Positions 1 to 60,883 of a stretch of 64,000 nucleotides of DNA are shown here, in pieces (within the stretch, counting starts at the first letter, position 1; every line of letters starts with the position of its first letter). The notes under the pieces were generated by a model. It ran no database searches and had not been told where the DNA came from. It saw only the letters and a program-made list of their open reading frames with translations. The stretch covers positions 469,358 to 533,357 of the forward strand of contig CACRXP010000417.1 of the NCBI GenBank assembly GCA_902702965.1. The letters run 5' to 3'. This DNA is from Spirometra erinaceieuropaei (Eukaryota > Platyhelminthes > Cestoda > Diphyllobothriidea > Diphyllobothriidae). The translations under genes were made by a program, and so were the position numbers.

Positions 1-128
1 TCTTCTCATTTGGAAACAAATTACTCCTCAATATTTTATACTTGAAGCAATATAGTCGTGCGGTTTTAAAAACGATTCCTGTTATGATATTTTTCAAACC
101 GTGAAATGCCCGTTCATCAAGCATCGTA
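1..128 (+). repeat. Foldback element fragment (inner left arm and start of centre)
   Basis: The stretch reads as the inner part of the left arm of the ~1 kb foldback family: a version of 'ttttatactcgaag', then a degraded 'ggtataattcggtttt', then 'accgtgaaatg.ccgttcat'. It is cut by the window edge on the left and decays on the right. Confidence 0.6.
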
Positions 129-3100
129 GACGACGGTCGGTTGAAGGATTCCGACTAACCTGATGTAGAATGTGGACCGTTTTGCAAACGACAGCTACGT
201 TGGAGTTTAAGCCTTACCGTTACTCTTAAATTTCGACTAAATAAAAGCCTACCATCGACGGTTCATTTAAATTCTTTTTATTTTGGACTATTGCTTTTTG
301 ATTTTGTTCTAGTTATCGAGCTCACTTTCGGTGACAAATAGTTGCATAAGATAAGACTATCGGCGGAAATTTAATTATTTTTGGTGTTTTATTGCATTAT
401 ACCTGCTCGCCGTCTTGCGCTTTGCCATAGCATAGAACCCGCCCCTATCATGATTTCCTTTTGACACTGGCCGCAGACTACCTCAAGTTAATTGAGGTCC
501 TACATCCTACCATTGCCACATCCTGTCTCTACACTTACTTATGTTGCTCGTTGAATTTACAACACGGCTTAAACCCACCTCAAGCCTTTAAGAACCTCAT
601 GTAATATTATCTGAATAATGCGTAGAAACGTATCATTTTCCTTGTCAGAAAGATAGCAACCTGTATTTTAAAACCCCTGAGTGCGAGTTTAATGGCAGGT
701 CAAATTCAATATTATTCAGGATGTACAGTCTTCAAAATCAAATAATACCTTTCTCTCAAGCATAAAATTCGAAAACGTCATCGGTCACAAATGCGTACAT
801 AAAATTGCACATGTCTTTTTCGGGCAACGGTGGGACGTAGGACCACTAAATAACGTGTGCTAGCCTGTAGACCGTCACATACGCTGAATAGTGGTGGAGG
901 GAATTTTACGGGTGGAATGATACACAGGACGGAAAGCAGAAAAACAGGGAAAATAACTTAATTTCCCCCTAATGTCTTATTGTACGCTGCCATTTGTCAA
1001 ATAAATTAGGTGCGATAGTTACAAAATGAACTGGGAGCAATTTTCAAAAAACAAAGCGCCTCGAATAAAGCGCAGCTGGTGACTTGAGATTTATTGAGTA
1101 AGGGAAGGAAATTACAGTGGAAACGGAAAATAAAAAGTAATGTTTACAGTCGCATTGAAGTTTAGGACATATTTTTGGAGTTGCCATCCATTTAGGGCTC
1201 CTGCACTCTATCGTTACCCTTTTTTAATAATGCAATATGTTCTTTTGTTTTCTCCGAAATTTTGATGATGTGATTTCTGCCTGGTTTTCAAATCAGCCTG
1301 ATTTTTTTTTCTAAAAATCACACAAGCCTAAGATTTCAAATCATAAAATCTGAGCACTTTGGAGGAGCAGTCTTTGTCGACGACAGAAAACGATGCGAAC
1401 ATTTCAGTAAACTTTTTAAAACCGTTGTACATTTCAGTTCCATGTTAATCGTCTTTTGGCAGAGCATTCCATTTATAGCATTTGCTAATCGCAGGAAGTC
1501 TCCTTATAATTCCCAAAATGTGTCTATTCATTTCTCATAGAAGTAAGACTTCTAAGCTAATGTTATTATCGGTGTGACTTTTCGTCTAGTTCCATAAAAT
1601 ATTATCGGTCTCCAGTTGATGTCTCATCCTCTTTGCGTGTCGTTTGTGCATATCAGTAATAAAAATATTACAATAAGGACATGGATAATTATTTTAAATA
1701 GGCACTATGGTTTCCAGCCGCGAAACTCAAAACTGTCGCGCTGGAAAAACCGCACTCACTTATCGCATCCGTTGAACGGACCTGAAAAAATCCAGTTCTG
1801 AAATCATTATACAAACCCAACAGTCAGGAAAAATAATATCCCCAAATTTCACTCTTTCCAGGGAAGAGCGATTATCTTTGTATAAAAACGTTTTGTCAAA
1901 TCGAGTTTTTGTAAGTGCAAGCTAGAGGCATTTTCTTTCATTTTGCCGCTAGGAGGAAGTATCAGATATATTGGAAGCGCTGTTGTAGCGAGATTGCCGC
2001 CTAGATAGGTGACAAATGCCGTTTGAATAACACACATAAGGTTCACCTCACACGATTAGAAAGCACGGGCTGAAATTCCTCTCTTTAGGCAAAACGTCTA
2101 TTCTGTTGGGGAAAGGGAAGGGCCATACAGAAATGCTGACGGTTTTGAAGAGTCCATAGGTGTTGTTGTTTCAAAGACTGCCCGAGGATATAACATGAAA
2201 CTGTTCACAACTGCGTGCGATCCAATTAAACGGGGGTTTAGCGGACAGATTGCGTAAATTAAAACCCCAGATAGTGATCCACGGACACAGTGACTATGTA
2301 CGGAAATGTTTTGTTTCGGACCATGTGGTTATATTCGTTTGTTTTGCTGGTTTGCATACTTACTTTTCGCCCTGCTTGCAATCTGTTCAACGACAATACC
2401 AAAACTCTCTAACCGGTTCGCTGTTTAAATCAAACCACTATCAGAATCTTTGCAAAAATATCGGCTGTCGTTTTATCCTACCGAGGAGGACGTTAACATA
2501 AATACCTAATTCTGCCTTTGGCAGTCTAGTTTCTTCTATTTGCCCGTACAAAATATATGATATCATTTGCATGACCAATGACTCAACTGCATTTGCCGTC
2601 CAATTAAATTTATAGAATTTCTCAAGCATACATTTCGCATATTTTTCAGCTCATAAATTTGTGACCTACAATTCACTTTGATAAGTTTTGCTAAAGAAAT
2701 TAAGCAGTATTTTGGTGAGACATTTGCAGGAAAAGACAGTCTATTTTTGCAACACTTTCGACAACCGTTTTAAGTGAATACACACTGGGAGAACAGTTTT
2801 TATGCTTCTGGTCAAGGATGAAACAGGCGAAGTAATTTTGTCTCCAACAAAATAGCATGTATTTTGGAGAATCTCTGAGAAGCCTGCAATTATTTTTAAT
2901 CTTGAGGAGAGTACAGTCGAAAAACGGTTTACATGACAAATCATTCAACATATGCCTCCGAATAGGCTGAAAAATGTTTTAAAAAATTTACTTTTCATGT
3001 TTTTTTTGCCTAGCCTACTGGCGATTAGGTAAGGAAAATTACCTGGCGACATCAATTCGGCTTCTACCAATATAAAACTCATTCACTTGCTTTTGTTTCA

Positions 3101-3592
3101 GGGCGTCTCCTTCTCACAATTTTTTTGTTATTTTTATCGATTAGAATGGTTAAAGGTTAATGGCTGGTTAATGGTTAATGCCTGAGTAACTTTTGTTTTA
3201 CCATCATCATTTGTTGCAGTTAGAGATTGTCGCGGCAGACTTCGGACCACTCCAAGAATAAGTTGTAAGTTCGGTTATAAAAATAGCTTAATGATATCAA
3301 CCGCTTGTTAAACGACACTGCTCAATCGTTATTCTTAACATGACGATACTTCCCTGCGAATTTGTCAGACTGGCGGCGCAGTTCAAAGAATTAAAATTTT
3401 TATTTTGGGCGTGGTTTTTGGAAAGGTTGTGTCTCCCGTCACATGACAGGAATGATTAATTACAAAGCGCACTAAGCAACGATGAACAGCGAATTTCTAG
3501 TGCTTTGTAAATAAGCAGTTCGGAGGATTGGAATCAAACAGAATCTAGCAAATGTAATGCCTTTAATTAAACACAGCTTAGTGCGGAACACC
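129..3592. other. Intergenic, no gene seen
   Basis: AT-rich DNA with only short, unrelated reading frames. Around 735-800 there is a faint relic of the foldback right arm ('aataccttt..tcaagcataaaattcgaaaacgtcat'). Nothing else is supportable. Confidence 0.5.
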
Positions 3593-4592
3593 ATAGTAGG
3601 TGGGCTAAATTAAGAAATGTCAGCCGAAATTCTAAAATGCGTTTTCGTTTCGAAAAGTTTAATTAAGTAGCTTCGTGAAACTAGTCAGTCCGCAACATAA
3701 TTCTATAATATTTCAGTTGCCTTAGGATGTCGGCTTTCAAATGTATTTTGGATGGGCTGCATGCAAAAACTACGCTCTGTAAAAGACGACTGCACACTTA
3801 GCACGAACTGTTCTCATTGATTTTCGATGCCCTTAGCATTCAATTATATTTCATTGCAAACATGCATAAAAAATATTCATTCTTTAACGCATACAGTAGA
3901 TAACTATGACTGCTTCTAATTTTGTACTCGAAAAGGGGGTCACACTTCAGTTTAACATAAGTTACTTATGATGGGACTTTTAAGTACCGTGAAATGGCCA
4001 TTCATAAATCCTCATGTATCTGCATTTACCGCTGTGGCTTGTAAAGTTAACAATATGACTCAAAATCACTCCTTAATTTAATGAACCCCATATGGTTTGC
4101 TCTTAATATCTTAGAGTAATACCTGGTATTTCGTACGCGGAAAATATGCGGCTTGAAGTTTTGACACTCTGAATCCAAGTGTAACGGCAGCGCGGGTTCA
4201 AAATTTTTCGCGAATCGGAAAGGTTTTTGAAAACCAAATATTACCCTTTCTTTGAGTTTAAGATTGCAAAAAAACATAATGTTCTACCGAAAGAGAAAAA
4301 GAATGAATATTTTATGCATGTTTTCCACAAAATATAATTGGAATTTTAGGGGCATTGAAAATCAATGAGGAAAGTTCATGCGACGTAAGTAGTCGTTTTT
4401 TAGAGAGTTTAGTTTTTTGGCATGCAGCGGAAAGCAAGTACATTCGAAAGCCAACATCCTGAGGTAACTGAAATATTATAGAATTGTGTTGCAGGCTGAC
4501 TATTTTTACGACCTTACTTAATTAAACTTTCCAAAACGAAAAAGTAGTTCGGAATTTCGGCTGACATTTCATGAGTGGGCACATCTACTGTG
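3593..4592 (+). mobile_element. Foldback element copy F1, complete
   Basis: Both ends are present: left 'tagtaggtgggctaa', right '..gtgggcacatctactgtg'. Inside are the arm landmarks in order: TTTCGAAAAG, the 'GGATGTCGGC' block, GCATGCAAAAACTAC, 'ttttcgatgccc', 'catgcataaa.atattcattc', a unique centre with 'accgtgaaatggcc' and 'cgtacgcggaaaatat', then the same landmarks in reverse complement and reverse order. No coding capacity. The family structure suggests a non-autonomous DNA transposon. Confidence 0.85.
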
Positions 4593-6299: not shown

Positions 6300-9029
6300 G
6301 ACACATTGTTTTTTTAAATAACAGCATTACTCTCTGGAGGGTTAGTGTGAAATAAGTGTTGTTTTTATAATTTTAGCTCATCTTTACTGTACTGATACAG
6401 TTTTTACCTTGTCAATTGTCAGCAGATGGTAAGTGATTCCTAAACTGAAGTTCATGACCATCACGGGAGTGCCTTTGACCACATGTACACCCAGCTGGGT
6501 CTCATCTTTCTCTATCCAGAGTCTGTGATTACTCTATCTACTCTGTCATGCGCTTATAAAGTTTTCCTAACCACTCTGAAGTCCAGAAAGATCGGGGCAC
6601 ATCGAGTCCCCACCATTGAGGCGTTCATGAAATCATGACAGCACACGCTTGTCAGGTGACGATCACAGATTCACTGGCTCTGACTCATTGAACTAACCGC
6701 ATGGCAGATTCCGTTGAAACAAAAGTAGATGACATGATTCTTAAGATTTCAGCCAAACTTGTAAACTGTGATTTCGATTAAAAAGGATAACCCAGGTGGG
6801 CTATATAGTATTGGTTGCCATGCACAACAATTCCGGGCAGTGAACTCCCTTATGCTCCCTCCGGCTGGAAAGCTCCGTACTAAATGTGCAATTGTGTTAA
6901 ATTTCAGTGAAATTATTGTTACGATCAGTGTTAGTATCTGTTTTGGTTAGAACACGGAAACAGTGTCGTACCTCGAATTTAGCACAAGGCCACTTGTATT
7001 AGTGGATAGGGACTTTTTCATCCCATCCAAAAGATATTTTGCCGCGTGAAGATACCGGATTTTAAATACGAGTCTTTCCGACAGCGTAATGAAATAAGGC
7101 TTGCTGTATATGTCTGAAATTGATTTTCGGCGGCCTAATAAAGCTCAGCATATCCTATGGAGATTCTGAACAAATATGCTATTCTGCATATATTTTCCGG
7201 GTAACAGACCTTTCTTTCGAATTTAAACCCTAGAAAATGATATCTTCTGGTTTAAAAGCTGCTCATTAAATTCTCAGTAATTGTGCCGTCATACGTCTCT
7301 CTGAAGTTTCCAAAGAGCAGATATTACACTCTCTATTTGAGGAAAATTATGCATTAAATTAAATTGCAGAGACGTTATCTTATTTAGATCACTACTTTTA
7401 ACGAATCAAAAGCAATCTGAAAACTTCATAAACTGCATTAAAAACACGCTGATAAGATGCTATCTAAAGAAATATTCGCGAGTCTAAAAATCACGTAATA
7501 AGAGACATTTTAGGACTAATTGTTTATGTACCTCTGCTCAGAATGCTTAAAAAACACAGCTTCTTACAGGATAGGTATAAGGACGGATATTTTATGGGCG
7601 CTTCCTACGAAACTGGTTTTCATCTACAAGGACACCGAACACCAACGGCAAATGTCTGCCATTCAAATGACCCTCTTAAAGTGAACTTAATTTTTATTTA
7701 ACTGGAAACCGACATCCTGACCTGACTGAAATCCTTTCTGCAGTATTCTGAATGATAATCAACGCTTCAACCCCTATCAAACAAATTCTTTGAACCAAAG
7801 TTGTATTTTCTAATTCCCCTTCGCGTTTTCATGATACATCCGGCTTCCTGCGCAGCAGGAAATCAATAATCCATGCAAAAATGGGCAGCGACGATGGGAG
7901 GCATTCTACGTCTTGCAGGCAGGATGTTGAACGACGAGCTTCACCGAGGCGACTGACACCGTTTTGATCACGACTGGGCGTTGTCGTCCAAGGACTGCAA
8001 ATGTAAAGTAGGTCAACCAGTTTACACACCCAAAAACAGGCAACAGACATCAAGAACAGTCGTAGTTTCGTCTGGGCAAACGAAACTAGATTTTATTTAA
8101 CCCTCCAATTTTTGGGCACAGAGAGCGATCCTTTTCGGAAAAGCCGTAGTTGTTATTTTGAAAAATAACAAACTTTTGCGAAACCGAGAAATGCGACTTT
8201 TGTCAATTTCAAGCTCATCACAGGAGGAAAAAACGTTCCTCCCCATGAGAAGTATTCACGTACTCTCGGGAGTAAGCAGATAAAGATCTGTTATTTTTAT
8301 GTGCTCTCGGCAATTTCCGGACTTGAACGGGAAAGTGTCCACTAGGGCATAAACTAAAGGAAAATAAGGGCCTCGTTGTGCAAGCCTCTGGGCTGGCCCA
8401 TTCGGGTCCACGACATATTATGTGAACTAGCAGTAACTGCACTGAGTGCTCAAATATTGGCGAAATAACAGGGCAATTGCACATTCTCACGCGTTTTCCA
8501 TTACTCACTCCGCTTTCGATGTTATTCCCTAGGGAATTGACAAGAAAATCGGAGCGACGTTATGAGAATGTGACCACAAATGGTTCGGAAAATTCTTAAG
8601 AAAAAGTCAAGTGAAGACCATTCTGATATTCGCAGTCAGAATGCAGAGGCATGCATCGACTTTATATTAATATTACTATTGACAGTCATCTGAAACAACG
8701 GCCTCCGCATTTTGACGAAGTCCATGAGATTTTCAGATATCTACATTTTGGCAACAACCTTTGGGAGAGTTAATCGTTTGTAATAGGCGGTGCAATTTAG
8801 CTATTCGAATTAACCGCAAGTAAACCGAATACTTCCTATCCGCTTGACCAGATAGTACGACTATTATGTAGATGGCTGGGATTTGAGAATTACGTATCGT
8901 GAATGTACAAATATATCCCTATGAAAGTTGAATTGTCGCAAACAACGTCGTTCACCGCATGTCCCTCAGGAGAGAAATAGCGCCCGCGACTCGCGCTTGA
9001 GTTATTCTGCAATGAGGCTCACTCGCCGC
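6300..9029. other. Intergenic, no gene seen
   Basis: No recognisable coding region. Around 7690-7760 is a weak relic of the foldback right arm ('ccgacatcctgacctgactgaaat'). The rest is unique-looking AT-rich DNA. Confidence 0.45.
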
Positions 9030-9655
9030 CATCTTCAGGTTTTATGAAGGGACATTTCACGGTATTAAAAAATCTCACACTTAGAAGCTCTTTTTAAGCC
9101 GAATTATACCCTTTTTGAGTGTAAAATTGAAATAAGACGCCAGTTTCTACTGACTGGGCAAAAAACGAATATTTTGTGCATATTTCAAACTGAGTCAGCC
9201 AATCCCGAGATGACAATCTTAACCAATCATTGACTCCTTTTGCTAGACTCAGGCTAAAAGTTAATTGTTTTTGCACACCCATTGTCTGAAGACGAGCTGG
9301 GGAACCAGTCTCGAAAATTCACAATAAAATTATGCTGTTTCCCAAAGAACTTCATCTTTCTAATTATATTTCTTGGGATGCCTATTTTTCAATAATTAAA
9401 TCTTTATGGGCATCGAAAATCAATGAAAAAATGCATACTACTTAAGTAGTCCTTTGTTACGGACTGTAGTTTTTGCATGCAGCCGAAAGGAAGTCCGCTC
9501 GAAAGCCAGCATCCTCAGGTAACTAAATTATTGTATAATTATGCTGCAGGCTAATTTGTTTTACAATCCTACATAATTAATTTTTTCGAAAAGAAGACGC
9601 ATTTCGGAATTTCTGTTGAGATTTCATGAGTTGGCCCACTTACTGTAAGGAACTC
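9030..9655 (+). mobile_element. Foldback element copy F2, rearranged
   Basis: 9040-9180 carries the inner arm in inverted order ('catttcacggtattaaaaaatctcaca', then 'ccgaattataccctttt'). 9395-9655 is a good right arm ending 'gagttggcccacttactgta'. About 200 bp between them (9185-9395) is not recognisable as element sequence, so the copy has been deleted and interrupted. Confidence 0.65.
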
Positions 9656-9860: not shown

Positions 9861-10856
9861 TACAGTAGATGAGCTAACTCATTAAATGTCAACCAAAATT
9901 CCGAAATGCGTTTTCGTTTCGAAAATATTAATTGCATGTGGTTGTAAAACTATTCAGTATGAAAAATCATTCTAAATTATAATAGTTACCTCAGGATGCC
10001 GGCATTTGATAGAAATTTATTCCGGCTGCATGCAAAAACTACACTGTAAAAATGGGTACTTATGTAGCATAAATTTCTCTCATTGATTTTCGATGCCCCT
10101 AAAAGTTCTTTTATAGTTCATGGAAGAAATGCATAAAAATATTCATTCCTTCGATCCTGTGATACAAAATTACGTCTGTTTTCCAATCTTTTACTCGGAC
10201 GAAGGGTATAATTAGGTTTTCAAAATATTTTTCCGATTCCCGAATAATTTTAAACTCGACCGGTTATTACCCTTGCATTTAGGGTTTCAAAACTATAAGC
10301 CATATATTTTCCGCTTACAGTAAACCACACATTGCTCTACGGTAAGAAAGGGGGACCATATAGGGTTCATGAGATTTAGCAGTGCATTTGATCCATATTG
10401 TCAACTTTACAAGCCACATAGGTAAATGCAAAGATATGCCGGTTTATGAGTCGCCATTTCACGGTATTTGAAATTTCCACAATTATAACCGTTTTGGAAA
10501 CCGATTAATGTCACTCCTTCGAGAATAACATTAGAAGAAGAAGTACTAATCTGCCGAATGATCAAAAGAATAAATATTTTTATGCATGTTTTACATGAAA
10601 TATAATTGAACTGTTAGGGGCATCGAAAATTAATGAGAAAGATTCATGCTAAATAAGTATCCATTTTGTACATAATATGGTTTTACATGCAGCCGGAAGG
10701 AAGTTTAATCGAAAGCCGGCATCCTGAGGTATCTATTTAAATTAGACTGATGTTGCATACTGACTAGTTTTATAACCATAAGTAATTAATATTTTCGAAA
10801 CACAAACGCATATCGGAATTTCGATTGTCATTTCGTGAGTTAGCCCACCTTCTGTG
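9861..10856 (+). mobile_element. Foldback element copy F3, complete
   Basis: It starts TACAGTAGATGAGCTAACTC and ends with 'gtgagttagcccaccttctgtg', 996 bp. All arm landmarks and the centre are recognisable; the centre includes 'ttccgcttacagtaaacc' and 'gccgg..ttatgagtcgccatttcacgg'. The centre lies in reverse orientation relative to F1. No coding sequence. Confidence 0.85.
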
Positions 10857-13800: not shown

Positions 13801-14074
13801 TCTTAATAAGTCAATGAACAGTTTGCGGTTTTCATTTTCTCAAATAAGCGTTGTGCAAGATGGTTTCCGCAATTCTATACTTACTGTTTCTGCAAAATAA
13901 GGCAGATTATGAAACCTCTCAATTTTTATTAAATGGCGCATTTCATTAGCTGTTGGATGAAATTCCAATGTGTATTTTCGATTTAAGAAAAATTATTTTG
14001 TTTGGCTTGCAATATTGACTATTATGCAGCATGGTCCGATGATATTTCAGTCACGTCAGGATAAGAGCTCTATT
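10857..14074. other. Intergenic, no gene seen
   Basis: Several short open frames occur (for example 11719-12024 minus and 12831-13178 plus), but none shows a recognisable domain and their composition is like the surroundings. Confidence 0.45.
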
Positions 14075-14340
14075 CGTCTGACGTTTCGGATTCCTGCTCG
14101 AACACATCATCAGTGACAAGACCAGATATGGGTGGTTCATGCACAAGGGGCTGCAGTATTTAGAGGATGCAGTAGTCATGTTACCGCATACCTATGAATA
14201 TTCGCGGCGCTCCCCCCACATCAGGGATCGTTTCACTTGTTGTGATGACTGTTTGATGGCCAAAATTCGCGTCGTTAATTGCTGCAGTTTGAACACGTGC
14301 CTTGGATGTTGGTGTGATGACTGCTCAACCATCTGACACG
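14075..14340 (-). repeat. 3' non-coding end of a retroelement, full-type copy
   Basis: Read on the minus strand it runs directly on from the GIY-YIG-type coding fragment upstream. It then passes a near-TATA stretch ('catcctctaaatactgcag') and ends with the motif CTGATGATG...GAATCCGAAACGTCAG. The copy at 34735-35100 matches nearly throughout and there reads 'TATAAATACCGCAGCCCC'. Confidence 0.6.
14078..14113 (-). ncRNA. Hammerhead-ribozyme-like motif (candidate)
   Basis: The minus strand reads CTGATGA, an imperfect hairpin segment (GTGTTC ... GAATCC), then CGAAAC and GTC. These are the conserved boxes of a hammerhead core in the right order (CUGAUGA, stem II, GAAA, cleavage triplet GUC). Flanks can form a short stem I: TTGTC before the core with GACGA after it, separated by an A-A mismatch. 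Stem III would be minimal (AC/GU), as in forms that act as dimers. PLEs are known to carry hammerhead motifs. Stem II has a mismatch, so activity is uncertain. Confidence 0.35.
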
Positions 14341-14639: not shown

Positions 14640-14790
14640 TCTTTTGTGCGCGGACCACCCGTAGCTGTGTTTGTGCAGGAATCCGAAGAGTCAGGAAAAT
14701 AAAGCTCTTGTACAAGCAACCGCGGCTCCTTCTTCATGACCTTCCTGGGACTCGTCTCTTTGCTTCTATTCACGTCACATCATACGCGTT
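14640..14790 (+). repeat. Copy of the GAATCCGAAACGTCAGGC retroelement-end repeat
   Basis: It contains 'caggaatccgaagagtcagg', 'ataaagctcttgt', and then 'ccttcctgggactcgtctctttgcttctat', matching 34990-35096. It is on the opposite strand to the retroelement end just to its left. Confidence 0.5.
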
Positions 14791-15295
14791 TCTTTTCGAC
14801 AGCTGCACAGAGCCACTCGGTGCAAAAATGATAACTTTTGTGATACGTATTTTATCCTATTAATTTTCGGCGTCCATATGATCTCAAAGATAGTTTATAG
14901 GCAACCTGCACAAAAGCGTCCTTTCTTGCACTTCTTTTATAGCCAATTACGTTCTGCCTAAATGTTATACTTGAAGAAAAGCTAGCCTTTTGTTTAAAAA
15001 TCTTAACTGCGATAGTTGTAAGCACTATGAAATGTCTGGTCAAAAGGCGGAATATCTGTGCCTTTTTCTATTGCCCTTGCCCATATAAAGAACAAGGTTT
15101 ATATGCTTTGCAAGAATGTATAAGACCTCTCCAAAATCATTATTAACAGTTTTATGAAGTATATAGGTATGCTGTTTCTATTTTGTACCACCTATAAGCC
15201 ATTGCAATGACAGGATGGTTTCAAAATCCATTTGGAATTGGAAAACTCTCTACAGAAAAGGGATATCATTACTTGGATTAGAATATTTGATAATG

Positions 15296-16201
15296 GCACA
15301 GTCAGCGACCGATAATTTAAAATGTCGGCCGGAATTCTAAGATGGATTTTAATAAGGAAGAATTATTAAGCACGGTTGTAATACTGTTTATCATACGGCA
15401 CAATCCTGTAATATTTCGGACTTATCGGGATGTTGGCTTTGGAATGCACTTCTTTTCGAGCTCCTGTTAAAACCGTACTTGGTGAAAAATGATTAATTAT
15501 GCAGCATGCATTTTTCACATTGATTTTTGGGGGTCTTGTATATCCAAATATATTTTATTGGAGAGATCCACAAAAATACGAGTTCTCTTACTTATTGGGT
15601 GGTAAATCGCATATGATACTTAAGAAGTGGCCATTTACGCTATATCTAACTTGTCCGTTTTATTAGTGTTCTGCATAAATTATACAACATAATTCGCATC
15701 CATTTCAAAATTTCATGAACACTTCATCACATTTTCGTAAAATATGTAGGAATATATGATATTCCCTACACAGACTAAAATCGTTAAACGCTCGCGCAAA
15801 GGCTGATCTGGATAAAAATTAATCCGGAGTTTGGAAACTTCTCAAAATCTATGTATATCTTTCCCTCGAGTATGATATGCAAAAACGGCGTAATTTGCTA
15901 CGAAATGAGCAAAAGAATACATTCTTTATTCACGTTTTCTATGGATGTACTTAAATTTCTAAGTGCGTTTACACCCAGTGCAATAAATACATTCTGCTTA
16001 AGTAGTTCATTTTACTGCGTGAAGTTTTTGCAAATGGTTACAAAGAGGTGCATTCAAAAGCCGACATTTTGTCCAGTCCGATGTGTTGTCCAATGAGGCT
16101 CCTCGATAATCAATATAACAACTTCATGTACTTAATGCTTCTTAATCGAAAACGCATTTCAAAAATCCGCCTAAATTTCTTCAGATCAGTCACTAATTGT
16201 A
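15296..16201 (+). mobile_element. Foldback element copy F4, strongly diverged
   Basis: The left end is 'cacagtcagcgac', with 'aaaatgtcggccggaattc' and a 'ggatgttggcttt' block. The right arm ends '..aaaacgcatttc..ttcagatcagtcactaattg'. Arm landmarks are recognisable but many are mutated. The left arm is closest to the partial copy at 21787-22062, suggesting a subfamily. Confidence 0.6.
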
Positions 16202-19466: not shown

Positions 19467-20433
19467 TACAGTAGGTGGGCTAATTCGCGAAATGTCGGCC
19501 CAAATTTCGAAATGCGTTCTCGTTTCAAAAAGGTTTATTAAGGAGGATTGCAAAACTGATCATGTCCAGTTACCTGAGGGTGTCGGCTTTAGAATGAATC
19601 TATTTCCGACTGCATGCTTAAACGATACTCTAGAAGAGAGCTACTTTAGTTGCATGCTATTTTCTCGTTGAATTTCGACGTCCATAAATGCTCAATTATA
19701 TTTCATTTTAAAAAGTACATATAAATATTCATTTTTCGCTCATGTGGTAGAAAATTACGTCCTCTTTCAATTTTTATACTCGAAGAAATAGTGTAATTCG
19801 GTTTCAAAAAGTTTCTAATCGTGAGACTTTTTAATGCCCTGAAATGGCCGTTCATGCGACGTCATGCATCTGTGTTTACCAATGTGGCTTGCAAGGTTAA
19901 TAATATTGTTCAACTGCACTGCTTGATTTTATGAGCCCCATATAGTCTTCTCTTAATACTATAGAGACATGTTTGGGTTTTGGTAGGCGGAAACTATACG
20001 GTTTGTAGTTTTGAAACCCTTAATGCAAGTATAACAACAGTTCGGGCTCAAAATTATTCGGGAATTAGAAACGTTCCTTTAAAACCGAAGTATACTCTTT
20101 TCGAGCATATAATTGGAAGAAGACGTAATTTCCTACCAAATAAATAAAAGAATAAATATTTTATGCATGTTTTCTATGAAATATAATTGAATTTTTAAAG
20201 ACCTCGAAAATCTATGAAAAAATGCATGCTACATAAATGGCCATTTTTTAAAAAGCATAGTCCGCATGCGACCGGAAAGAGGTTCATTCAGCCGAAGACA
20301 CCCTGAGGTGACTGGATCATTTTATAAATTTGCTTACGATGATAAGTTTTACAACTATACTTAATAAATCTTTTCGAAACGAGAACGCATTTCGAGATTT
20401 GAGCCGGCATTTAAAAAGTTGGCCCACCTAATA
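19467..20433 (+). mobile_element. Foldback element copy F5, complete
   Basis: It starts TACAGTAGGTGGGCTAATTC and ends 'gttggcccacctaatata', about 967 bp. Both arms and the centre ('gccctgaaatggccgttcat', 'ggtaggcggaaactatacgg') are clear. It sits between the two direct copies of repeat R. Confidence 0.85.
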
Positions 20434-20472
20434 TATACATATAACAACCCACAGTTCTTTTTTGCAAATCAA

Positions 20473-21196: not shown

Positions 21197-21578
21197 CGCT
21201 ATAGCTCCCTCGTGGCGAATACATATACATCTGAAAGAACAATTTAGACGTATAGTAGATGTGCTAACCAATGAAACGTTAACCTATATTCTTGAATTCG
21301 TGTTCGACTCGACAAGAGCACTAAAATGACTATCAAGTCGCATGAGTTTTTCTCCTGCTTTTCGGTGGTCTTTTAAATTCATAGAAACATGCATAAAGAT
21401 CTTCGTTCTTTGACTCATTAAGTAGAACATAACGTCAACCTCGCAATTTATACTTGATGGTTGGGTATAATTCATCTCTCGCTCTCTATAGCTCCCTCGT
21501 GGAGAATACATATACAACTGAAAGAACGACTGAGACCTATAGTGCATGTGCTAATCAATTAAATATTAACCGATATTC
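21197..21578 (+). repeat. 287-bp tandem duplication including a foldback left end
   Basis: 'ctatagctccctcgtgg' followed by 'gaatacatatacaNctgaaagaac' and then a foldback left terminus ('tatagtagatgtgctaac') occurs at 21198 and again at 21485. Each copy continues into foldback-arm sequence, and the first unit also contains 'catgcataaagatcttcgttcttt' from the arm. Confidence 0.65.
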
Positions 21579-21786
21579 TTAAATGCGTTTTGAACTCGGA
21601 AATATCACTGAAATAAAGTTATAATATTAATTGCCTTGCAGCACAACCCCAGACTACTTCAGGTACTTAGAGATGTCGGCTTTTGAATGCACTTCGTTTT
21701 GGTCGCCTGCAAAAACTACACGCTAAAAATGACTACGCACGAAATATGCATTTTTCTAACTGTTTTCGATGGCCTTATAACTATGT

Positions 21787-22062
21787 ACAGTGCTTGACCT
21801 ATCTCATGAAATGTTGGCTGAAATTCTGAAATGCGTTTTCGATTAGGAAGGACTACTTGGTCGCGGTTGTGATACTGATTATCTTAAGGCATACTCTTAT
21901 AACATTTTGAACTCGGCAGGATGTCGGCTTTTAAACGCACTTCTTTTCAATCTCCTGTAGAAAGCGTGCTTTGTAAAAAATGACTACTTATGCAGCATGC
22001 ATTTTTCCCATTGATTTTCGATGGTCTAAGAAATTCAAATAAATTTTATAGAAACCACAAAC
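21787..22062 (+). mobile_element. Foldback element left arm, partial copy F6
   Basis: It runs from 'acagtgcttgacctatctcatgaaatgttggc' through 'ggatgtcggcttttaaacgcac' and 'gcagcatgcatttttcccattgattttcgatgg'. The right arm is missing. Confidence 0.65.
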
Positions 22063-22235
22063 AAAATTATGCTTTCTAGTTGCCTGGTCCAAAATTGCGC
22101 CAAACCCCGCTAATCGACCCCAAACGCCTCAAACCGCCGAAGTTGGTCTTACGGCCTTATGATCAGGCACATGGTGATTGCCTCTGTTCTCTCTGCAACA
22201 GATGCGCGATCCATTACTCTTATCTGACTCCGTCT

Positions 22236-22399: not shown

Positions 22400-23409
22400 T
22401 TGTTGATTCGTTTCGAGAGTGTGGGCCAACACTTTTGGCATTTCGGTGCTCGCCACACAGCGAGCTTGTGCTTCCGAGTGCACTGAATTCTCATCCTGGT
22501 CTGTGTGCCTTTTTGTAATTATCTCTGGCCGTCCCCTCCAGGTGTGCCAAGAGCGAATTCGCCCAGAAAGGGTGCAAAGGCTGGATTCGCTATAAAGTTA
22601 GAATCTGCATATGTAACGCAGCAGATGCCTTACTCAGATCAAAACCCATCGTCCAAATAAGATTTACGAGGAAATATTGATGTTCACCGAAATACAGCCT
22701 ATGTTTAACCACCGCGCGTCCTTTAATAATCCTGTGTGCATCTTGATGCTAGACGTCTGCTGTATTAAGGATACCCAAGTTTGACTTTGATCTATCCACC
22801 GCGGGGCACTTAAAACAGGCGTCAGAACTCGCAAAGTCTTCTATGTGCACCATTGCTCAGATGTAAATGCCCAGCTAATTAGCATGAAAGACATTATTAA
22901 GCCAATTCGTACGCGGCTTAACCCATGTGTATCTTTCCAATTTCTATCACAATTCCAAAACACATTAATAATAAAGCTGTGTCTTGTCCCTAAAGTACCT
23001 CGTCCTCGGTCAGGGCCATTTGTTATCGGAACAAAGTTAATTTTCAAAGCCTTGGATAGTACGAGCATGTAAAAGCAGCAAGCAGAAACAGACGTTTTCT
23101 GGTCAGCCGTATATTCTGACGCAAGCTCATTATACAACTTTTACGATTACCGGGAGAAATGAGTAGACAGATTTAAAAGAGCAGTATGATCTACTTTTGG
23201 AAAATGCTTGCAGCTAATAAGTAGAATGCAGAAAGTACAAACGAAGACACTAGTGGCGTCAAAATTAAACAGGCATTCAAATAAGAATTAAAAGAACATT
23301 TTCACAAGCTTGAAATCAAAAATACGAAGCGGCACAATTTTTAAAGTAAAAGGAGAACAAAATAAATTCTCTTTTCTTCCATGGAACTGTGATAGAATAA
23401 GAACCGATG
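22400..23409. other. Intergenic, no gene seen
   Basis: Open frames at 22841-23137 (minus) and 22845-23072 (plus) overlap and show no recognisable domain. Confidence 0.4.
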
Positions 23410-24335
23410 ATGTGCTCCGAAAGACCCCGTGAGAAGAGTTTTAGTATCAGTTTTCGTGCAGCCTAGTCCCAAGATACTTCGGTCATATCAGGATGCTGGC
23501 TTTTAAACAAGGTTCTCTTCGGCGATCTGCAAAACCTGCATTCTGCAAAAAGGGAAGGATACGTACAGTGAATTTTTCTCATTAATATTCGACACCCTCA
23601 TAAGTTTAAATATACTTCATAGAAAATGTGCACAAACATTTTCAATTTCTGACTCATGTGGTAAAAATTCACATCATCATTAAAGATCAAATTTAAAAAA
23701 AAACATCATTCATTTTTTTTAATCTTTTCAATCCCCGAACAATTTCCAACCCAACCTGTCGCTGCACTTGCATTCAGGACTTCCAAACTGCAACCTCCAT
23801 ATTTTCAGTGAGGGAAATCATTAAATGCTACATGTTATTATAAAGATACCATACGGGGTTCATAAAGTTCTGCGGCAGACTTGAACTGTATTTTATATAT
23901 TAGAAACAGCATTAATAAATTAAAAGATATAATGTGTTATGGGCGTGCTTTTCGTGGTCCTAAAGGTTTCCGTAATTAGAAACTTTTTACAATTGGAAGA
24001 TGCTTTTCCTTTAATTATAATATTTATAAAAAACCTGATTCGCTATAAAATATTCTAAAAGACAAATAATTTTGTGAATATTTTCTATAAAATATATTTA
24101 CATTTACGTTGACATCAAACACCAATAAAAAACATTCATACTATATACGTAACCATTTTTAAAGAATGTAGTTCCTCGGGCAGTTGGTGAGAATTTTGTC
24201 GGAAAGACGACATTATTGCGTAACTTAATTACCTTGGAGTGATGTTATACAATCATCAATATTAAAACCCTACTCAAGTGGCCCTTCTGATCTGAAAATG
24301 AATTTCGGAACTTCTGCTAGAATTTCATTTTAATG
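23410..24335 (+). mobile_element. Foldback element copy F7, strongly diverged
   Basis: Left-arm landmarks 'aggatgctggcttttaaac' and 'tttctcattaatattcgacaccc' are followed by the centre and a right arm with 'atactatatacgtaaccattttt' and 'gaatttcggaacttctgctagaatttcat'. The termini are no longer recognisable. Confidence 0.5.
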
Positions 24336-28054: not shown

Positions 28055-28946
28055 CCAAGTTTTAAGAAATTTTCGAATTGTGACAATGTTTAATACCGCG
28101 AAATGGCCGTTCATAAATCGTCATGTCTCCGCATTTACCAATGTGGCTTGTTAAGTTAACAATATGGCTAAATTTTATGAACCTCTCATGGTCTCCTCTT
28201 AATACCGTAGACAAATGTGTGGCTTTCTGTACGCGGAAAATATACGGCTTGAAGTTGGAAAACCCTGAATTCAAGTGTAGCGATGTCTGTCATCGGACAT
28301 GTACGGAAGAACTTATTTACTTCTCCGAAATGACTAGCTTAATCCTCTTGTGCCATGTCGGTACTCACCATACAACTGCTGTATGGGTTGTTGACTGCGT
28401 TTTGGCTTACTTCGGTTCGGTTACGGCACAAATACCCAACGGTTTCTGTTGTCAAACGCGTACGCCATGATTTACCTACTTCAAGTATGCTTGCTCGTAG
28501 TCCCTCTCATAACCTGTAATAAGGCGGTTCAATGTCGTTGGATTTCCGTATAAAAATTTAACTACATATGGTCCTCAAATTGAGTTTAACAAGGGGCCGT
28601 TCAGGTTCCCTATTCGGGAAGTCGTAACACCGGATAAGCTTCCGCAGAATACGACCTGCGCACCGATGACCTGCGCATGAGTTGGATTATTACAAAGCAG
28701 ACTTACACAGCATCTACCGCACTCTCGCCTTCCCTCACCCACTTTGCTCAGGTGACAGGAGTGACAATAATTTTTGCATGCGACCGTAAAGACGTTCACT
28801 TGAAAACAGGCCTCCTGCAGTAACTGAATTTTTACAGAAGTATACTGCAGAATGACTACTTTTACAACCCATTAAATTAATCTTTTCGAAACGAAAACGT
28901 ATTTCGGAATTTAGGTTGACATTTCATGAGTTAGCCCACCTATTGT
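28055..28946 (+). mobile_element. Foldback element copy F8, interrupted by another repeat
   Basis: 28060-28285 is the family centre ('ataccgcgaaatggccgttcat', 'gtacgcggaaaatatacgg'). It stops abruptly. The right arm resumes at 28776 with 'tttttgcatgcgacc' and ends 'gagttagcccacctattgta'. The intervening ~490 bp consists of repeat L (28440-28650) and an RB piece (28660-28772), so those entered, or were swapped into, an existing foldback copy. Confidence 0.7.
28440..28650 (+). repeat. Repeat L copy
   Basis: It opens 'cggtttctgttgtcaaacgcg' and closes 'ataagcttccgcagaatacg'. The same block begins at 28957 and at 38640, where it opens each half of the large duplication. Confidence 0.65.
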
Positions 28947-29944
28947 ATCTCCTACCGGTTTCTGTTTTCAAACGCGTACGCCATGGTTTACTTACTTCTT
29001 CAAGTATACTTGCTCATAGTCCCTCTTATAACCATTAATAGGGCAGTCCAATTCTGTCAGATTTACACACAAAAAATTACCTAAGAATGATCGTCAAATT
29101 GAGTCTAAGAAGGAGCCGTTCATGTTCCCAAATTGAGAATTTGTTGAACGGAATAAGCTTCCGCAGTATACGCCAGGAGTATTTCTCGCGCTCACTTGAG
29201 ACCAACGCTGTTTCGAGCAAGCCACAGAAAGCCGTCTACATGAGCCCGTATTATTTGACCCGACATCAAAGCCCTTAGATCGTTCCTTCTTTGACATTTG
29301 TCTGACATATTGGCATGTTGCTACGTCAGAGAGTAGTGCCCTTGTCTGGCAGCATTCTACCACCTTCTCCGAGTTTATAGCTTCAGTTAATTCCTCTGCT
29401 TTGATCAGAAAGTCAATCTTCGATTGCCCGACTTTTCTGCGACATGGAGCAACCATTATTAGCCATTCTGTTCATAAATGCGCTTCATTATTTTGTACAT
29501 GCCTTCACACACAGAAATTTGTCTTCCTTGAAATTTTATTTGACAGTAGTTAGTTGGCTTGTTATGGGGAGGCAAACAGGCGTCCATGGTTACGCTATTT
29601 GGTCTTTTCTTGTCCATTAGGGTGTATTTCCATAGCTTCTCTAATATTCACGTGCATTACGCAGCGTTGCAGAAAATGGTCACAGTTACTATATTTAGCA
29701 CTCACTGTTCTCGCTCCTATTGGTTTTTCGTTTAACTGATCTCTGGCCTGTCGCCAATTTGCAGGCGGCGAATTAGTTAATTACCGTTTACTTATTGAAA
29801 CTTGCCACTTGTCTAATTTTAAATTAACGCGCTCGCTTCCGTTGCCATATATAGGTGTAGGCGAAGGATTTCAGCAGAAATATATCTATTTCCTAAGTGT
29901 TATTGTATGCATTTTGCTTACCCTGTTTGGTGATGCCTCACTAT

Positions 29945-31365
29945 TCCTCTATCCCACGAGACTGAGGTTTCTGGTTGCAAAGTGGGGTTATAAAACCCAC
30001 CGTTGCCCATAAAACCTCTCCATGCAAATTGCTGAGACGTTAAACATGTTTTAGGATATAAGATGTATATATTACTCAAGAATTAGTGTAAGATGCATTA
30101 TGAGAGCTTGTCGACTGTTTGATGTTTGATAATGTCCCAAGGGAATTCAGCAAAGTTATCCGTTTTTTACATCTTCTGGTTGTGGATCATTTCAGCTAAG
30201 AAGATAGCTTTATTTTCTGAAATTAGGAATAATGGAACATTAATTATTACGCGGCATAATCCCATAATATCTCGGAATTGCTAGGATGTCAACTTTTGGT
30301 TGTACTTCTTTCCGACCTCCTGTAGATGCTTTTCTCAGTGAAAATGGCTTTTTAAGTAGCATGCATTTTCGTACTTACTTTCGATGATCTTACAAAATTA
30401 AATATACCTTATAGAAAGCATGCGCAAAATGAACTTTCTTTTAATCATCTGGTGGCAAAGCACGTCATCGGTGCATTACATTCTCGACGAAAGAGTATAA
30501 AATGCGGTCACTCAATGTAGGAGCGTCACAGAGATAGCTGTGTTCATGCGCTCACAAATTCAAAGACCTATCAAAGACTAAGACGTTTGAATATAATTAC
30601 CGGTTGCCATCAATAGCATACTGTACGTTATGCAGGGGCCTATACTGCTACCACCATCCCCGTATTACGCGAGGCTGAGGTTTCTTGCTGCGAAGTGGCG
30701 TTATAAAATCTACCGTTGCCCGTAAAACCTCTTCATGCAAACTGCTGATACGCTAAACATGTTTTATAGTATAAGATGTAAATACCTCTCAAGAATTAGT
30801 GTAATATGCATCATGATAGCATGTCGACTGTTTGTTGCCTGACAATGTCCCAATAGAATTCAGCGTATTAATGGGTTTTTTAATTTTTCCGGTTGTGGCT
30901 TGTTTCAGCGAAGAAGACTGAGCTTGATTTCATTAGGTTGGGAAGGATTTAATATCAGTTATTACGCGGCATAATCTACTAATATCTCGGAATTGCTAGG
31001 ATGTCAGCTTTGGGTTGTACCTCTTTCCAACCTTCTGTAAATACTTTGCTCAGTAAAAAGGACTACTTAAGTAACATGCAGTTTCGCACTTACTTTCGAT
31101 GATCTTAAAAAATTAAATATACCTCATAGAAAACATGCGCAAAATGAGCTTTCTTTTAATCATTTAATGGCACAGCACGTCATCGTTACATTTCATTCTT
31201 GACGAAAAACTACAAAATGCGATCGGTCACTCATTGTAGGAGCATCACAGAGATAGATGTGTTCATAGGCTCACAAATTCAAAGACCTATCAACGACTAA
31301 GACATTTGAGTATAATTACCAGTTGCAATAATAAGCATACTGTAAGTTATACAGGGGCCTTATAC
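29945..31365 (+). repeat. Two tandem ~710-bp units related to the foldback arm
   Basis: Units at about 29945-30640 and 30655-31365 both run from 'gaggtttctNgttgc.aagtgg' to 'gttatNcaggggcct'. Inside each is 'ggcataatc..taatatctcggaattgctaggatgtca' and 'agtagcatgcattttcg', which are foldback-arm landmarks, so these units are distant relatives of that family. Copy 2 of the large duplication has them at 39830-40190 (truncated) and 40195-40945. Confidence 0.65.
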
Positions 31366-31962: not shown

Positions 31963-32909
31963 TACAGACGTATTTACTCAGGATATGTTAACCAAAATTC
32001 TGTAATGTGTTTTCGACTCGGAAAAATTGTTTAAGTATGGTTGAACTGTTAATCGCCTTGCGCCATAATTCCGTAATAATTCAGTTACTTCGGGATGCCA
32101 GCATTCGAACAAACTTTTTTCGGATCGTCTGCAAAGACCACACTCTTTAAAAAAGATTACTTAAACGGTATGCATTTGTCACCAATTTTCGATGCTTTTA
32201 TAAATCCTACCATACCTCATCGAAAATACGCATAAAAATATTTATTATTTTATGCAGTTGAAAAAAAAATTGCATCATCTTTAAGACTGGTTCTTGAAGA
32301 GGGGTATAATTCGGTTAAAATGAAGTTTCTAAAAAGAGCTTTTAAGGCAGTGAAATGCCCATTCATAAAACATTCTGTCCGTGCGTTTACTAACGCTGTT
32401 TGTCAACTTAACAATGTGGCTTAAATCCACATATGGTCTCTTCCTAATACCTTAGAAATGTATGATTTTCCGTACACGCAGAATTTGCAGCTTGTAAGCG
32501 CAATAGCAGGTTGGGTTCAACATTATTCGGGAATTAGAAAGGCTTTTTAAAACCACATCAGGTTTTCCTTTCAAGTATAAAATTTGAGGAAGACGTAATT
32601 ATATACTAAATTAGTAAGAGAAAGAATATATATTTGCATGCTATCTAGTAAAATATTTCTTAATTTATAAGGGCTCTGAACATCAATAGAAAAAGTCCTA
32701 CTACATAAGCAGTCGTTTCTTGCATTGTGTAGTTTTTAAGAGGCCAAAAGGAAATTGGCTCAAAAGCCGGCACCCTGAATTAACTGGATTATCATGGGAT
32801 TGTGCTGCAAGGTGATGTATATAAAAACCCTACGTAAGTAATCTTTTAGAATAGAAAAACCCATTACAGAATTTCGGCTAACATTTCATGAGTTAGCACA
32901 TCTGCAGTA
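31963..32909 (+). mobile_element. Foldback element copy F9, complete
   Basis: It starts 'tacagacgtatttactcagg' and ends 'gagttagcacatctgcagta', 947 bp. Both arms and the centre are present. It is the counterpart of F10 (41518-42479) in the duplicated copy. Confidence 0.8.
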
Positions 32910-33571: not shown

Positions 33572-33609
<38 letters not shown>

Positions 33610-34245: not shown

Positions 34246-34254
34246 ATGATACAT

Positions 34255-35911: not shown

Positions 35912-36195
35912 TACGGTAGATGGGCAAACACATGAAATACCAACCGAAATGCCTTTTCGTTTCGAAAAGATTACTTAAGTAGGGTTATAAAACTAATCGT
36001 CCTTCAAAATAATTCTATAATAGCTCAGGTACCTCAGGATGCCGGCCTTCGAACGAAATTCTTTCTGGCCACATATACAATCTACGCTCTGTACAATACG
36101 ACTACTTGGGCAGCGTGCATTTTTCACACAGATTTTCGATGCACCTAAAAATTAAAATATATTTCATGGAAAACACGCATGAAAATATCTATGCA
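35912..36195 (+). mobile_element. Foldback left arm only, copy F11
   Basis: It begins TACGGTAGATGGGCAAACAC, carries TTTCGAAAAG and the 'ggatgccggcc' block, and stops at 'atgaaaatatctatgcaggg'. F12 at 44752 stops at the same point, so the truncation predates the large duplication. Confidence 0.8.
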
Positions 36196-36399
36196 GGGTC
36201 AGATGGGGGAGGAAGAAAATGCGCCGTCTTTGTTATTGGGACCATTGACGACCATTTTTGTGGTTTCTTTAAGGAATACTTTCGGAGGACATTTGTCCGC
36301 ATGACCTGCGAATTGGATTATTGCTCACTTGTCAGTGAATTAGAAATTTCAGAAAGCACTTTGATTGTGTCTTCGTACTGTCCTTTCGTGCGCCACTAA

Positions 36400-41517: not shown

Positions 41518-42479
41518 TACAGTAGATGTGCTTACTCAGGAAATGTTAACCGAAATTCTGGAATGTGTTTTCGACTCGGAAAGATTACTTAAGTAGGGTT
41601 GTACTATTAATCGTCTTGCAGCATAATCCCATAAAAATTCAGTGACTACGGAATGCCGGCATTTGAAAGAACTTTTTTCGACCGCCTGAAAAAACTACAC
41701 CCTGCAAAAAAGATTACTTGATCGGTATGCATTTTTTCATCGATTTTCGATGCTTTTATAAATTAAACTAAAATTGACAGAAAACACTCATAAAAATATT
41801 TATTCTTTTACGAATTTCAAAGAAAATTGCGTTGTCTTCAGATTTTATACTTAACGAAGTGGTATAATTCGGTTTTAAATAGGTTTTTAAAAAAGAGTTT
41901 TGTAAGACAGTAAAATTCCCATTCATAAAGCATTGTGTCCCCGCATTTACTAATGCTGATTGTCAAGTCAACAATGCGGCTCAAATCCACATATGGTCTC
42001 TTATTTATACCTTAAAGAAATGCGTGATTTTTTTTACACGCAGAATGTGCAACGTGTAGGTTGGAAACCCCGAATGCAAGTGCAATAGCAAGTCGGGTAC
42101 AACATTAATCGGGAATTAGAAAGGTCTTTTTTAAACCACATCAGTTTTTTCCTTCAAGTATAAAATTTGAAGAAGACGTACTTATTTAACAAATTGGTAA
42201 AAAATAAAAATATTTTTGCGTGCTTCCTATGAAATACATTTGAAATAATAAAGGCTTCAAAACTCAATAAAAAAATTCCTTACATCTTTTACATAGTGTA
42301 GCTTTTGCAGGATTCAGAAAAGATTTTGGTTCATAAGCCGGCACGCTGAAGTAACTGACTTATCATTGGATTGTGCTGCACGGTGATTTATATTAAACCC
42401 CTACATAAGAAATATTGTAGAATCGAAAACTCATCACAGAATTTCGGTTAACATTTCATGAGTTGGCACATCTACTCTA
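41518..42479 (+). mobile_element. Foldback element copy F10, complete
   Basis: It starts TACAGTAGATGTGCTTACTC and ends 'gagttggcacatctactcta', 962 bp. It is the duplicated counterpart of F9 and keeps 'agcacatc'-type subfamily termini. Confidence 0.8.
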
Positions 42480-44751: not shown

Positions 44752-45033
44752 TACGGTAGATCGGCAAACACATGAAATATCAACCGAAATGCGTTTTCGT
44801 TTCGAAAAGATTACTTAAGTAGTGTTATAAAACTAATCGTCTTTCAACATAATTCCATAAAACTTCAAATAACTCAGGATGCCGCCTTTCGAACGAACTT
44901 CTTTTTGGCCGCATACTCAAACTACACTCTGTACAAAACGACTGCTTGTGCAGCGTACATTTTTCTCACAGATTTTCGATGCACCTAAAAACTAAAATAT
45001 ATTTCATGGAAAACACACATGACAATATCTATG
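44752..45033 (+). mobile_element. Foldback left arm only, copy F12
   Basis: It begins TACGGTAGATCGGCAAACAC and ends at the same breakpoint as F11 ('caatatctatgcggagtcag'). Confidence 0.8.
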
Positions 45034-60775: not shown

Positions 60776-60883
60776 GGTTTTCACAGAAGTATGCAAGTCT
60801 GCCAAAAACACCTGAGTCGGTGGAAGATTCCCCACCCCCTTCCGGTGCACCTCAATGAGTAGTCGAAAAATGGAAAACCTTAT

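What the first reader, a model, noticed from the sequence alone, without database searches (positions are those of the whole stretch)
3593..4592. An abundant ~1 kb foldback element with Tc1/mariner-like ends
At least twelve copies or parts occur (F0-F14), for example 3593-4592, 9861-10856, 19467-20433, 31963-32909, 41518-42479, 56800-57655 and 60884-61566. The layout is constant: TACAGTAGGTGGGCTAA, a ~400-bp arm, a ~220-bp unique centre, and the inverted arm. TA next to CAGT-type ends is the usual pattern of the Tc1/mariner superfamily. Arms this long relative to the centre are unusual and should fold into a near-full-length hairpin, a possible source of small RNAs. I do not recognise the family from any published name.
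Basis: partly seen in the sequence, partly recalled or inferred. Interest (0 to 1): 0.78.

Follow-up and report, generated by a model that had tools for sequence, protein, structure and literature searches.

The report
Old hairpin-shaped tapeworm transposon family
A stretch of what looks like tapeworm DNA is one-fifth filled with old, decayed copies of a 1-kb mobile element without genes that is almost two mirror-image halves, and in several copies the halves seem to have changed together before the copy landed, while in one that could be checked they changed apart afterwards.

Summary
Six complete copies (0.86-1.0 kb) and many parts share two inverted arms of about 360 bp around a common centre of about 280 bp, ending in (T/C)A-CAGTAG. 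A profile of the six finds 24 segments, 12,975 bp, 20% of the window, and none in ten shuffles. Not all are separate insertions: 31963-32909 and 41518-42479 are one insertion copied by a duplication, as are 35912 and 44752. Five copies tested have no long open frame. The flanks best fit a TA target duplication, but no empty site was found, so TA may belong to the inverted repeat. Tc1/mariner membership is plausible, not shown.

New here: arms of one copy tend to be closest relatives, and a tree of left against right arms is rejected (AU p 0.00025). In a copy duplicated after insertion the arms changed independently. So arms were kept alike before insertion, not detectably after. The host is probably a tapeworm related to Spirometra. 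I judge it a new family of a known kind, laid out like C. elegans Tc7 (recalled). The whole-genome search did not complete.

The parts
3592..4592 (+). c1, complete copy; arms about 3592-3965 and 4222-4592, centre between; ends CA..TG instead of TA..TA
9861..10856 (-). c2, complete copy
   Evidence: fold z -22.4
19467..20435 (+). c3, complete copy, TA at both ends; carries the exact 17-mer at its left end
31963..32909 (+). c4, complete copy with decayed left end; same insertion as c5, copied by duplication
41518..42479 (+). c5, complete copy, TA at both ends; same insertion as c4
56800..57655 (+). c6, complete copy (856 bp, internal deletions), TA at both ends
60883..61578 (+). c7, left end, arm with a deletion, centre and part of the right arm; right end missing
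28058..28947 (+). p28, interrupted copy: centre 28058-28280 and right end 28768-28947, with other repeats between
9037..9647 (-). p9, partial copy: outer arm 9378-9647 (end at 9647) and inner part 9037-9192
35912..36231 (+). p35, left arm only; same insertion as p44
44752..45033 (+). p44, left arm only; same insertion as p35
21251..22098 (+). cluster of arm fragments with ends at 21251, 21538 and 21786; the first two lie in a 142-bp local tandem repeat
15307..16192 (+). c15, diverged nearly full-length copy; no end motif within 5 mismatches
23405..24332 (-). c23, diverged nearly full-length copy; no end motif within 5 mismatches
14779..15312 (+). diverged fragment
7096..7829 (-). strongly diverged fragment
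30213..31263 (+). two diverged arm fragments (30213-30543, 30910-31263) inside a ~715-bp direct repeat
40512..40830 (+). diverged arm fragment, duplicate of the 30213 unit
5..127 (+). diverged inner fragment at the window edge
518..781 (+). diverged centre fragment
13943..14101 (-). diverged arm fragment

Best explanation
It is an extinct or resting family of non-autonomous, cut-and-paste DNA transposons with very long terminal inverted repeats. A transposase made elsewhere in the genome, most likely a TA-targeting Tc1/mariner-like enzyme, would bind the outer (T/C)ACAGTAGRTGKGCTAACTCATGAAATG ends and move the element into TA sites. While a lineage was mobile its two arms were repeatedly made alike (by arm-to-arm copying, through hairpin extrusion or gap repair), so each copy landed as an almost perfect hairpin. 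Once inserted, the arms drifted independently and the hairpin decayed. Shown: layout, lack of long open frames, common ends, TA beside 12 of 16 ends, arms of several copies more alike than arm type predicts, independent drift in one pair duplicated after insertion. Inferred: cut-and-paste, the type of transposase, TA duplication, the way and the time at which the arms were made alike.
For: Six complete copies with shared ends and a shared centre; arms and centre equally conserved between five independent copies: 0.70, 0.71, 0.70.

All six frames of five copies and of the consensus hold 10-30 stops; five of the six longest consensus peptides match no Pfam family at its cut-off.

TA at 12 of 16 independent ends. 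In five complete independent copies the 2-base fit that gives TA matches 7 of 10 bases.

Arms: within-copy pairs are sisters for c1 (99/93), c2 (98/97), c3 (82/91) and c23 (94/91), and for c1, c2, c3 and c5 in the best tree. The tree of left against right arms is rejected, delta lnL 48.8, AU p 0.00025. The true pairing of seven copies is matched or beaten by 2 of 5,040 pairings, itself included. Shared site patterns favour within-copy over arm-specific in 8 of 10 copy pairs (e.g. c1/c2 22 to 6, c2/c5 29 to 3); these ten pairs are not independent of each other.

After duplication of one insertion: c4/c5 show 2 conversion-like, 38 arm-specific and 3 crossed columns.
Against: No empty site, no partner transposase and no autonomous relative was seen; the whole genome could not be searched. 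c1 has CA..TG and c2 has one non-TA end, so TA is not universal. Ends were found by a motif that contains TA, which biases the TA count upward. Of 90 boundary-and-length combinations, one 8-base fit (boundary one base further out) reaches 17 of 40, the random 99% level, and one 10-base fit 20 of 50; with 90 trials I take these as chance.

For c2/c6 and c3/c6 the within-copy excess is absent (5 to 7 and 5 to 5). c6 arms are not grouped in either best tree, c15 arms do not pair, and c4/c5 left and right arms are not joined. The tree that forces all five pairs together is neither best nor rejected (AU p 0.119). Part of the pairing signal over seven copies comes from subfamilies; in c1, c2, c3 and c6 alone it is small (0.76 within, 0.72 left-right between). 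The outermost bases of c1 and c2 differ between left (GGTGGGC) and right (GATGTGC, GATGAGC), so not everything was made alike.
Confidence: 0.6

Rival explanations
1. Same kind of element, but moved by another superfamily; (T/C)ACAGTAG is simply the start of the inverted repeat and the true target duplication is absent, lost or too decayed to see.
For: TA is its own reverse complement, so filled sites cannot decide. c1 reads CA at the left and TG at the right, as an inverted repeat would, not a direct repeat. One 8-base fit, one base outside the boundary used, reaches the random 99% level (17 of 40). A Merlin-like transposase remnant lies in the window at 53244-53600.
Against: At 12 of 16 independent ends the two bases are TA. 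With 0.12-0.25 changes per site on each arm since insertion, a true duplication should still match at roughly 70% of bases (my estimate); the TA fit does (7 of 10), the 8-base fit does not (42%) and is one of 90 tried. At that level of decay the C-for-T changes in c1 are not surprising.
Confidence: 0.25
2. The arms were made alike by ordinary gene conversion at the resting locus of each young copy, not during transposition; conversion stopped when the arms had diverged too far.
For: It gives the same within-copy pairing. In c4/c5 the arms seem already diverged when the duplication took place (stems of 0.09 and 0.11), so this pair cannot exclude conversion in younger copies.
Against: c4/c5 show 2 conversion-like against 38 arm-specific columns and the number of double changes expected by chance (15 against 15.0).
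Confidence: 0.35
3. The long hairpin is kept by selection as a source of small RNAs that silence transposons.
For: The predicted hairpin is strong (z -22.4). [quoted passage not shown]
Against: The arms of the six complete copies have decayed to 61-78% identity. In c4/c5, changes on the two arms are independent. No expression data were available. c5 folds within the range of 20 other 1-kb stretches (-292; mean -269, strongest -334).
Confidence: 0.05
4. Each foldback copy arose separately, by inverted duplication of a single-arm element, so that arms of one copy are sisters for that reason.
For: Arm-only fragments exist (p35/p44, the 21251-22098 cluster).
Against: The complete copies share the same centre at the same position, and arm-only fragments stop at different inner positions, as truncations do.
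Confidence: 0.05

Closest known systems
Tc7 of Caenorhabditis elegans ('Tc7, a Tc1-hitch hiking transposon', Rezsohazy et al. 1997; title seen in a reference list; details recalled, paper not held)
   Same: From recall: about 0.92 kb, two ~345-bp inverted repeats around a short unique centre, no reading frame, TA target, moved in trans by Tc1 transposase. The layout is almost the same.
   Different: Here the helper transposase and the TA duplication are not shown, and the copies are old and decayed. No sequence comparison with Tc7 was made.
Drosophila mariner MITEs with unusually long TIRs (PMC4161770, passages read)
   Same: MITEs there are typically 900-1000 bp (460-560 in four lineages); in seven sublineages long arms arose by replacing the 3' part with the 5' part of the element.
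   Different: Two thirds of those lineages have larger mariner relatives in the genome (one third had none, says the passage); here no partner is known and the consensus peptides show no transposase match.
Foldback-like elements such as Galileo of the P superfamily (PMC4168063, passages read)
   Same: Very long inverted arms, many defective copies.
   Different: Its transposase places Galileo in the P superfamily; 8-bp target duplications of P elements are recalled. No 8-bp duplication fits well here.
Tc1-IS630-Pogo-like elements of Spirometra (PMC12249497, passage read)
   Same: In a related tapeworm, half of the 1.4% DNA transposons are called Tc1-IS630-Pogo-like, so a helper is plausible; 24.4% of that genome is unclassified repeat.
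   Different: No sequence of those elements was available to compare.

Membership tests
Tc1/mariner superfamily (non-autonomous member) | TA target-site duplication | tested here: inconclusive
   TA at 12 of 16 independent ends; 3 of 5 complete independent copies have TA at both ends; no empty site found in the window
Tc1/mariner superfamily (non-autonomous member) | Ends recognised by, and shared with, an element coding a DDE/D transposase of this superfamily | not tested
   whole-genome search unreachable in 17 attempts; in the window only 13 of the 118 frames of 80 aa or more (one of them trimmed) were given to Pfam, none matching such a transposase
Tc1/mariner superfamily (non-autonomous member) | Inverted terminal repeats starting CAGT or similar (recalled) | tested here: met
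   of the 20 ends read, most begin CAGTAG or are one or two changes from it; c4L is decayed
MITE / non-autonomous TIR element | Inverted terminal repeats, no coding capacity, several dispersed copies with common ends | tested here: met
   coding tested on five copies and the consensus
hAT, P or Merlin element | 8-9-bp target-site duplication (recalled) | tested here: not met
   five complete copies, boundary offsets -3 to 6: 8-base fits 9-17 of 40 (random mean 10.1, 95% level 15, 99% level 17; the 17 is at offset -1), 9-base fits 5-14 of 45; far below what a duplication of this age should keep, but all copies are old, so moderate evidence
Tc7-like hitch-hiker | Arms ~0.35 kb, unique centre ~0.25 kb (recalled), outer ends matching an autonomous partner | tested here: inconclusive
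   layout met; partner could not be searched

The most novel reading that the evidence does not exclude
The element copies itself through its own hairpin: at each move one arm templates the other, so every new insertion is born as a perfect ~360-bp hairpin and only decays later. While young it would feed Dicer with long double-stranded RNA, in a lineage that lacks piRNAs, so bursts of the element would make their own silencers and end themselves.
Probability: 0.12. Interest if true: 0.7.

Novelty: new member of a known kind. Interest (0 to 1): 0.4.

Why it matters
Long-armed non-autonomous elements are known; how their arms stay alike is a question that a single window can rarely address. Here it gives both halves of a test: arms alike before insertion, and independent drift in one insertion after it was duplicated. 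The result also bears on how tapeworms, said to lack a canonical piRNA pathway (PMC6880638), might meet transposon double-stranded RNA. If the density seen here is general, this family would make up part of the large unclassified repeat fraction of such genomes; one window cannot show that.

Tried and rejected
Longer target duplication: not supported (the two best chance-like fits are told in the Against line). Empty sites: joined flanks of 12 copies found no uninterrupted counterpart in the window. The repeat at 38633, which begins with the same TATCTCC as the flank of p28, is not shown to be an empty site: the sequence on its other side does not match the other flank of p28. The tandem repeat around c3 gave none either; the separate c3 alignment only matched overlapping sequence with itself and told nothing. 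Tc1-type inner repeat of the end motif: best direct inner match 18, inverted 14 and 20, shuffled 95% level 20 for a 30-base query, so no clear one. Known RNA family: none in the window at gathering scores. Relatives elsewhere: no phage record, no exact match of an end pattern in viral contigs or prokaryote genomes, nor of a centre pattern in viral contigs; these collections are not expected to hold tapeworm DNA. Published name: the 12-base end motif occurs in 14 papers; the 10 listed (titles and abstract starts seen) are not about repeats, the other 4 were not seen. Dfam and Repbase could not be searched. The WD-repeat exon gave no homologue at E<=0.001.

Dropped rows: for the TA count, c4L, c4R, p44 and 21251 were dropped as duplicates (20 ends to 16; with them 15 of 20 are TA). 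The AU test used 10 of 22 arms. The pairing test used 7 copies, with c4 left out as a duplicate of c5. The fold background of 20 stretches avoided the family and other inverted repeats. Of six consensus peptides printed, five were given to Pfam.

Full report
Where the window comes from. The window is eukaryotic by its content. An open frame at 53244-53600 holds part of a DDE_Tnp_IS1595 domain (E 7.7e-9), the transposase fold of Merlin elements (recalled). The only two hits the protein search returned are both from the tapeworm Spirometra erinaceieuropaei, at 62% and 56% identity. A second frame (46979-47383) found two proteins at 72-73% without organism names. I take the host to be a tapeworm related to Spirometra; the species is not known.

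The observation. The six complete copies align from end to end. Their profile finds 24 merged segments at E<1e-8, 12,975 bp, 20% of the window, and nothing at E<0.01 in ten dinucleotide shuffles of it. The end motif with at most 4 mismatches occurs 1.75 times per mononucleotide shuffle, so single distant motif hits mean little; the profile hits are the evidence. Complete copies are 63-79% identical, which is old.

Anatomy. A majority consensus of five independent complete copies is 1,000 bp. Its two arms are 331 of 360 identical and lose similarity beyond about 360, leaving a centre of about 280 bp that the complete copies share. Between the five copies, left arm, centre and right arm are equally conserved (0.70, 0.71, 0.70). 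Each of six frames of the five copies and of the consensus holds 10-30 stops. Of six consensus peptides of 48 residues or more, five were given to Pfam; none matches above cut-off, and one weak match (TIP39, E 0.042) looks like chance. 9861-10856 folds to -391 kcal/mol, z -22.4 against 20 shuffles; 3592-4592 to -421 (no shuffles at that length). Twenty other 1-kb stretches, chosen to avoid inverted repeats, average -269, the strongest -334. c5 (-292) and the shorter c6 (-333) are no longer outside that range.

Copies that are not independent. Pieces of 28946-37304 are similar to 38632-46157. c4 and c5 lie inside and are 79% identical, their flanks 76.5-78.1%. The arm fragments at 35912 and 44752 have flanks about 85-87% identical. 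Each pair is best read as one insertion copied with its surroundings, so the family was in place before the duplication.

Ends and target site. Twenty ends were read. The two bases outside CAGT-type ends are TA in 15 of 20, or 12 of 16 after dropping duplicates. Because the motif used to find the ends contains TA, this is somewhat biased. c3, c5 and c6 have TA at both ends; c2 has TA and TG; c1 has CA and TG (window strand). I tried boundaries from 3 bases outside to 6 inside and lengths of 2-10 bases, 90 combinations, on five complete copies. The 2-base fit that gives TA is best (7 of 10); a 5-base fit of 16 of 25 lies inside the near-palindromic ends; an 8-base fit one base outside reaches 17 of 40, the random 99% level, and a 10-base fit 20 of 50. 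A duplication of this age should keep about 70% of its bases (my estimate), so I take the last two as chance. A TA duplication is the best reading, but an inverted repeat that begins with TA looks identical in filled sites. No empty site could be found in the window.

How the arms evolved. If the two arms of a mobile lineage accumulated their own changes, left arms of all copies should group against right arms. They do not. In a tree of 22 arms, left and right arms of c1 (support 99/93), c2 (98/97), c3 (82/91) and c23 (94/91) are sisters; c6 is unresolved, c15 does not pair, and the c4/c5 left and right pairs are not joined. On ten arms of five independent copies, the best tree pairs c1, c2, c3 and c5; forcing left against right costs 48.8 log-likelihood units (AU p 0.00025), while forcing all five pairs costs 2.2 (p 0.119, not rejected). 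Among 5,040 ways of pairing left and right arms of seven copies, 2, the true one included, are as good as the true one; part of this comes from subfamilies, for among c1, c2, c3 and c6 alone the difference is small (0.76 within, 0.72 between). In two-by-two site counts, within-copy patterns beat arm-specific ones in 8 of 10 copy pairs; c2/c6 (5 to 7) and c3/c6 (5 to 5) do not show it. The outermost bases of c1 and c2 still differ between left and right.

The control. c4 and c5 share one insertion, duplicated later. Here the arms group by arm, not by copy (100/99 for both): 38 columns are arm-specific, 2 conversion-like and 3 crossed, and 15 columns changed on both arms where 15.0 are expected if the arms change independently. 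So after the duplication little or nothing copied one arm on the other, and nothing preserved pairing. The limit of this control is that the arms of this insertion seem to have been about 20% apart when it was duplicated (stems 0.09 and 0.11), perhaps too far for gene conversion.

Interpretation. The simplest account is a non-autonomous cut-and-paste transposon moved by a transposase from elsewhere, with arms made alike during its mobile life and drifting after insertion. Branch lengths since insertion are similar among copies, 0.12-0.20 per site with c5_R at 0.25, which fits a limited period of activity. A Tc1/mariner-type helper is the best guess because of TA and the CAGT-type ends, and because half of the DNA transposons annotated in a Spirometra genome are Tc1-IS630-Pogo-like (PMC12249497, passage). 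It is a guess until a partner element or empty sites are found.

Comparison. The layout is, from recall, that of C. elegans Tc7, known to hitch-hike on Tc1 (title seen). Drosophila mariner MITEs of 900-1000 bp, seven sublineages with long arms made by internal rearrangement, are described in PMC4161770 (passages). So long arms do not make this categorically new. Whether the family has a name could not be checked: no repeat library was available. The paper search for its end motif (14 papers, 10 listed) and for tapeworm repeats (1, 498 and 13 papers, 1, 15 and 12 listed) showed nothing that names it in the listed titles and abstract starts, and the passages seen of four tapeworm papers name no such element.

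Noticed in passing
39613-39769, 54635-54790, 54868-55012, 50178-50292, 60449-60639: A tRNA-derived repeat (probable SINE): ARAGORN calls tRNA-Ser at 39624-39706, and related copies lie elsewhere, two of them head to head at 54640-55012.
   Followed up: partly
37041-37460, 48161-48527, 45892-46157, 16596-16842: A second, shorter near-palindromic repeat (~420 bp, arms 73-74% alike) beginning TATGGGCAG; another candidate foldback family, with no BLAST match to the one studied at E 1e-4.
   Followed up: partly
53244-53600: Part of a Merlin-like (IS1595/ISXO2-type) transposase, closest to a Spirometra protein at 62% identity.
   Followed up: yes
46976-47383 (-): Open frame that reads like a GIY-YIG endonuclease end of a Penelope-like element (my reading; no Pfam match); two homologues at 72-73%.
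   Followed up: partly
about 28946-37304 and 38632-46157: Two copies of an ~8-kb block, 8.8-10.3 kb apart by piece, with patchy identity (76-90%); the tRNA-like repeat at 39620 appears to be present in one copy only.
   Followed up: partly
26982-27085 and 28660-28761: A ~103-bp repeat pair, 92% identical, one of the most alike short pairs noticed outside simple repeats; the second copy lies inside an interrupted foldback copy.
   Followed up: no
56138-60257 (-): Frames with WD40-like stretches (weak, below cut-off at 57913-58314), perhaps exons of a WD-repeat gene; c6 might then lie in one of its introns. A large trinucleotide array sits at 58816-59583.
   Followed up: partly
3592, 4592, 9861, 10856: The outermost bases differ between left (GGTGGGC) and right (GATGTGC, GATGAGC) ends in c1 and c2, although the rest of the arms look homogenised.
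   Followed up: no
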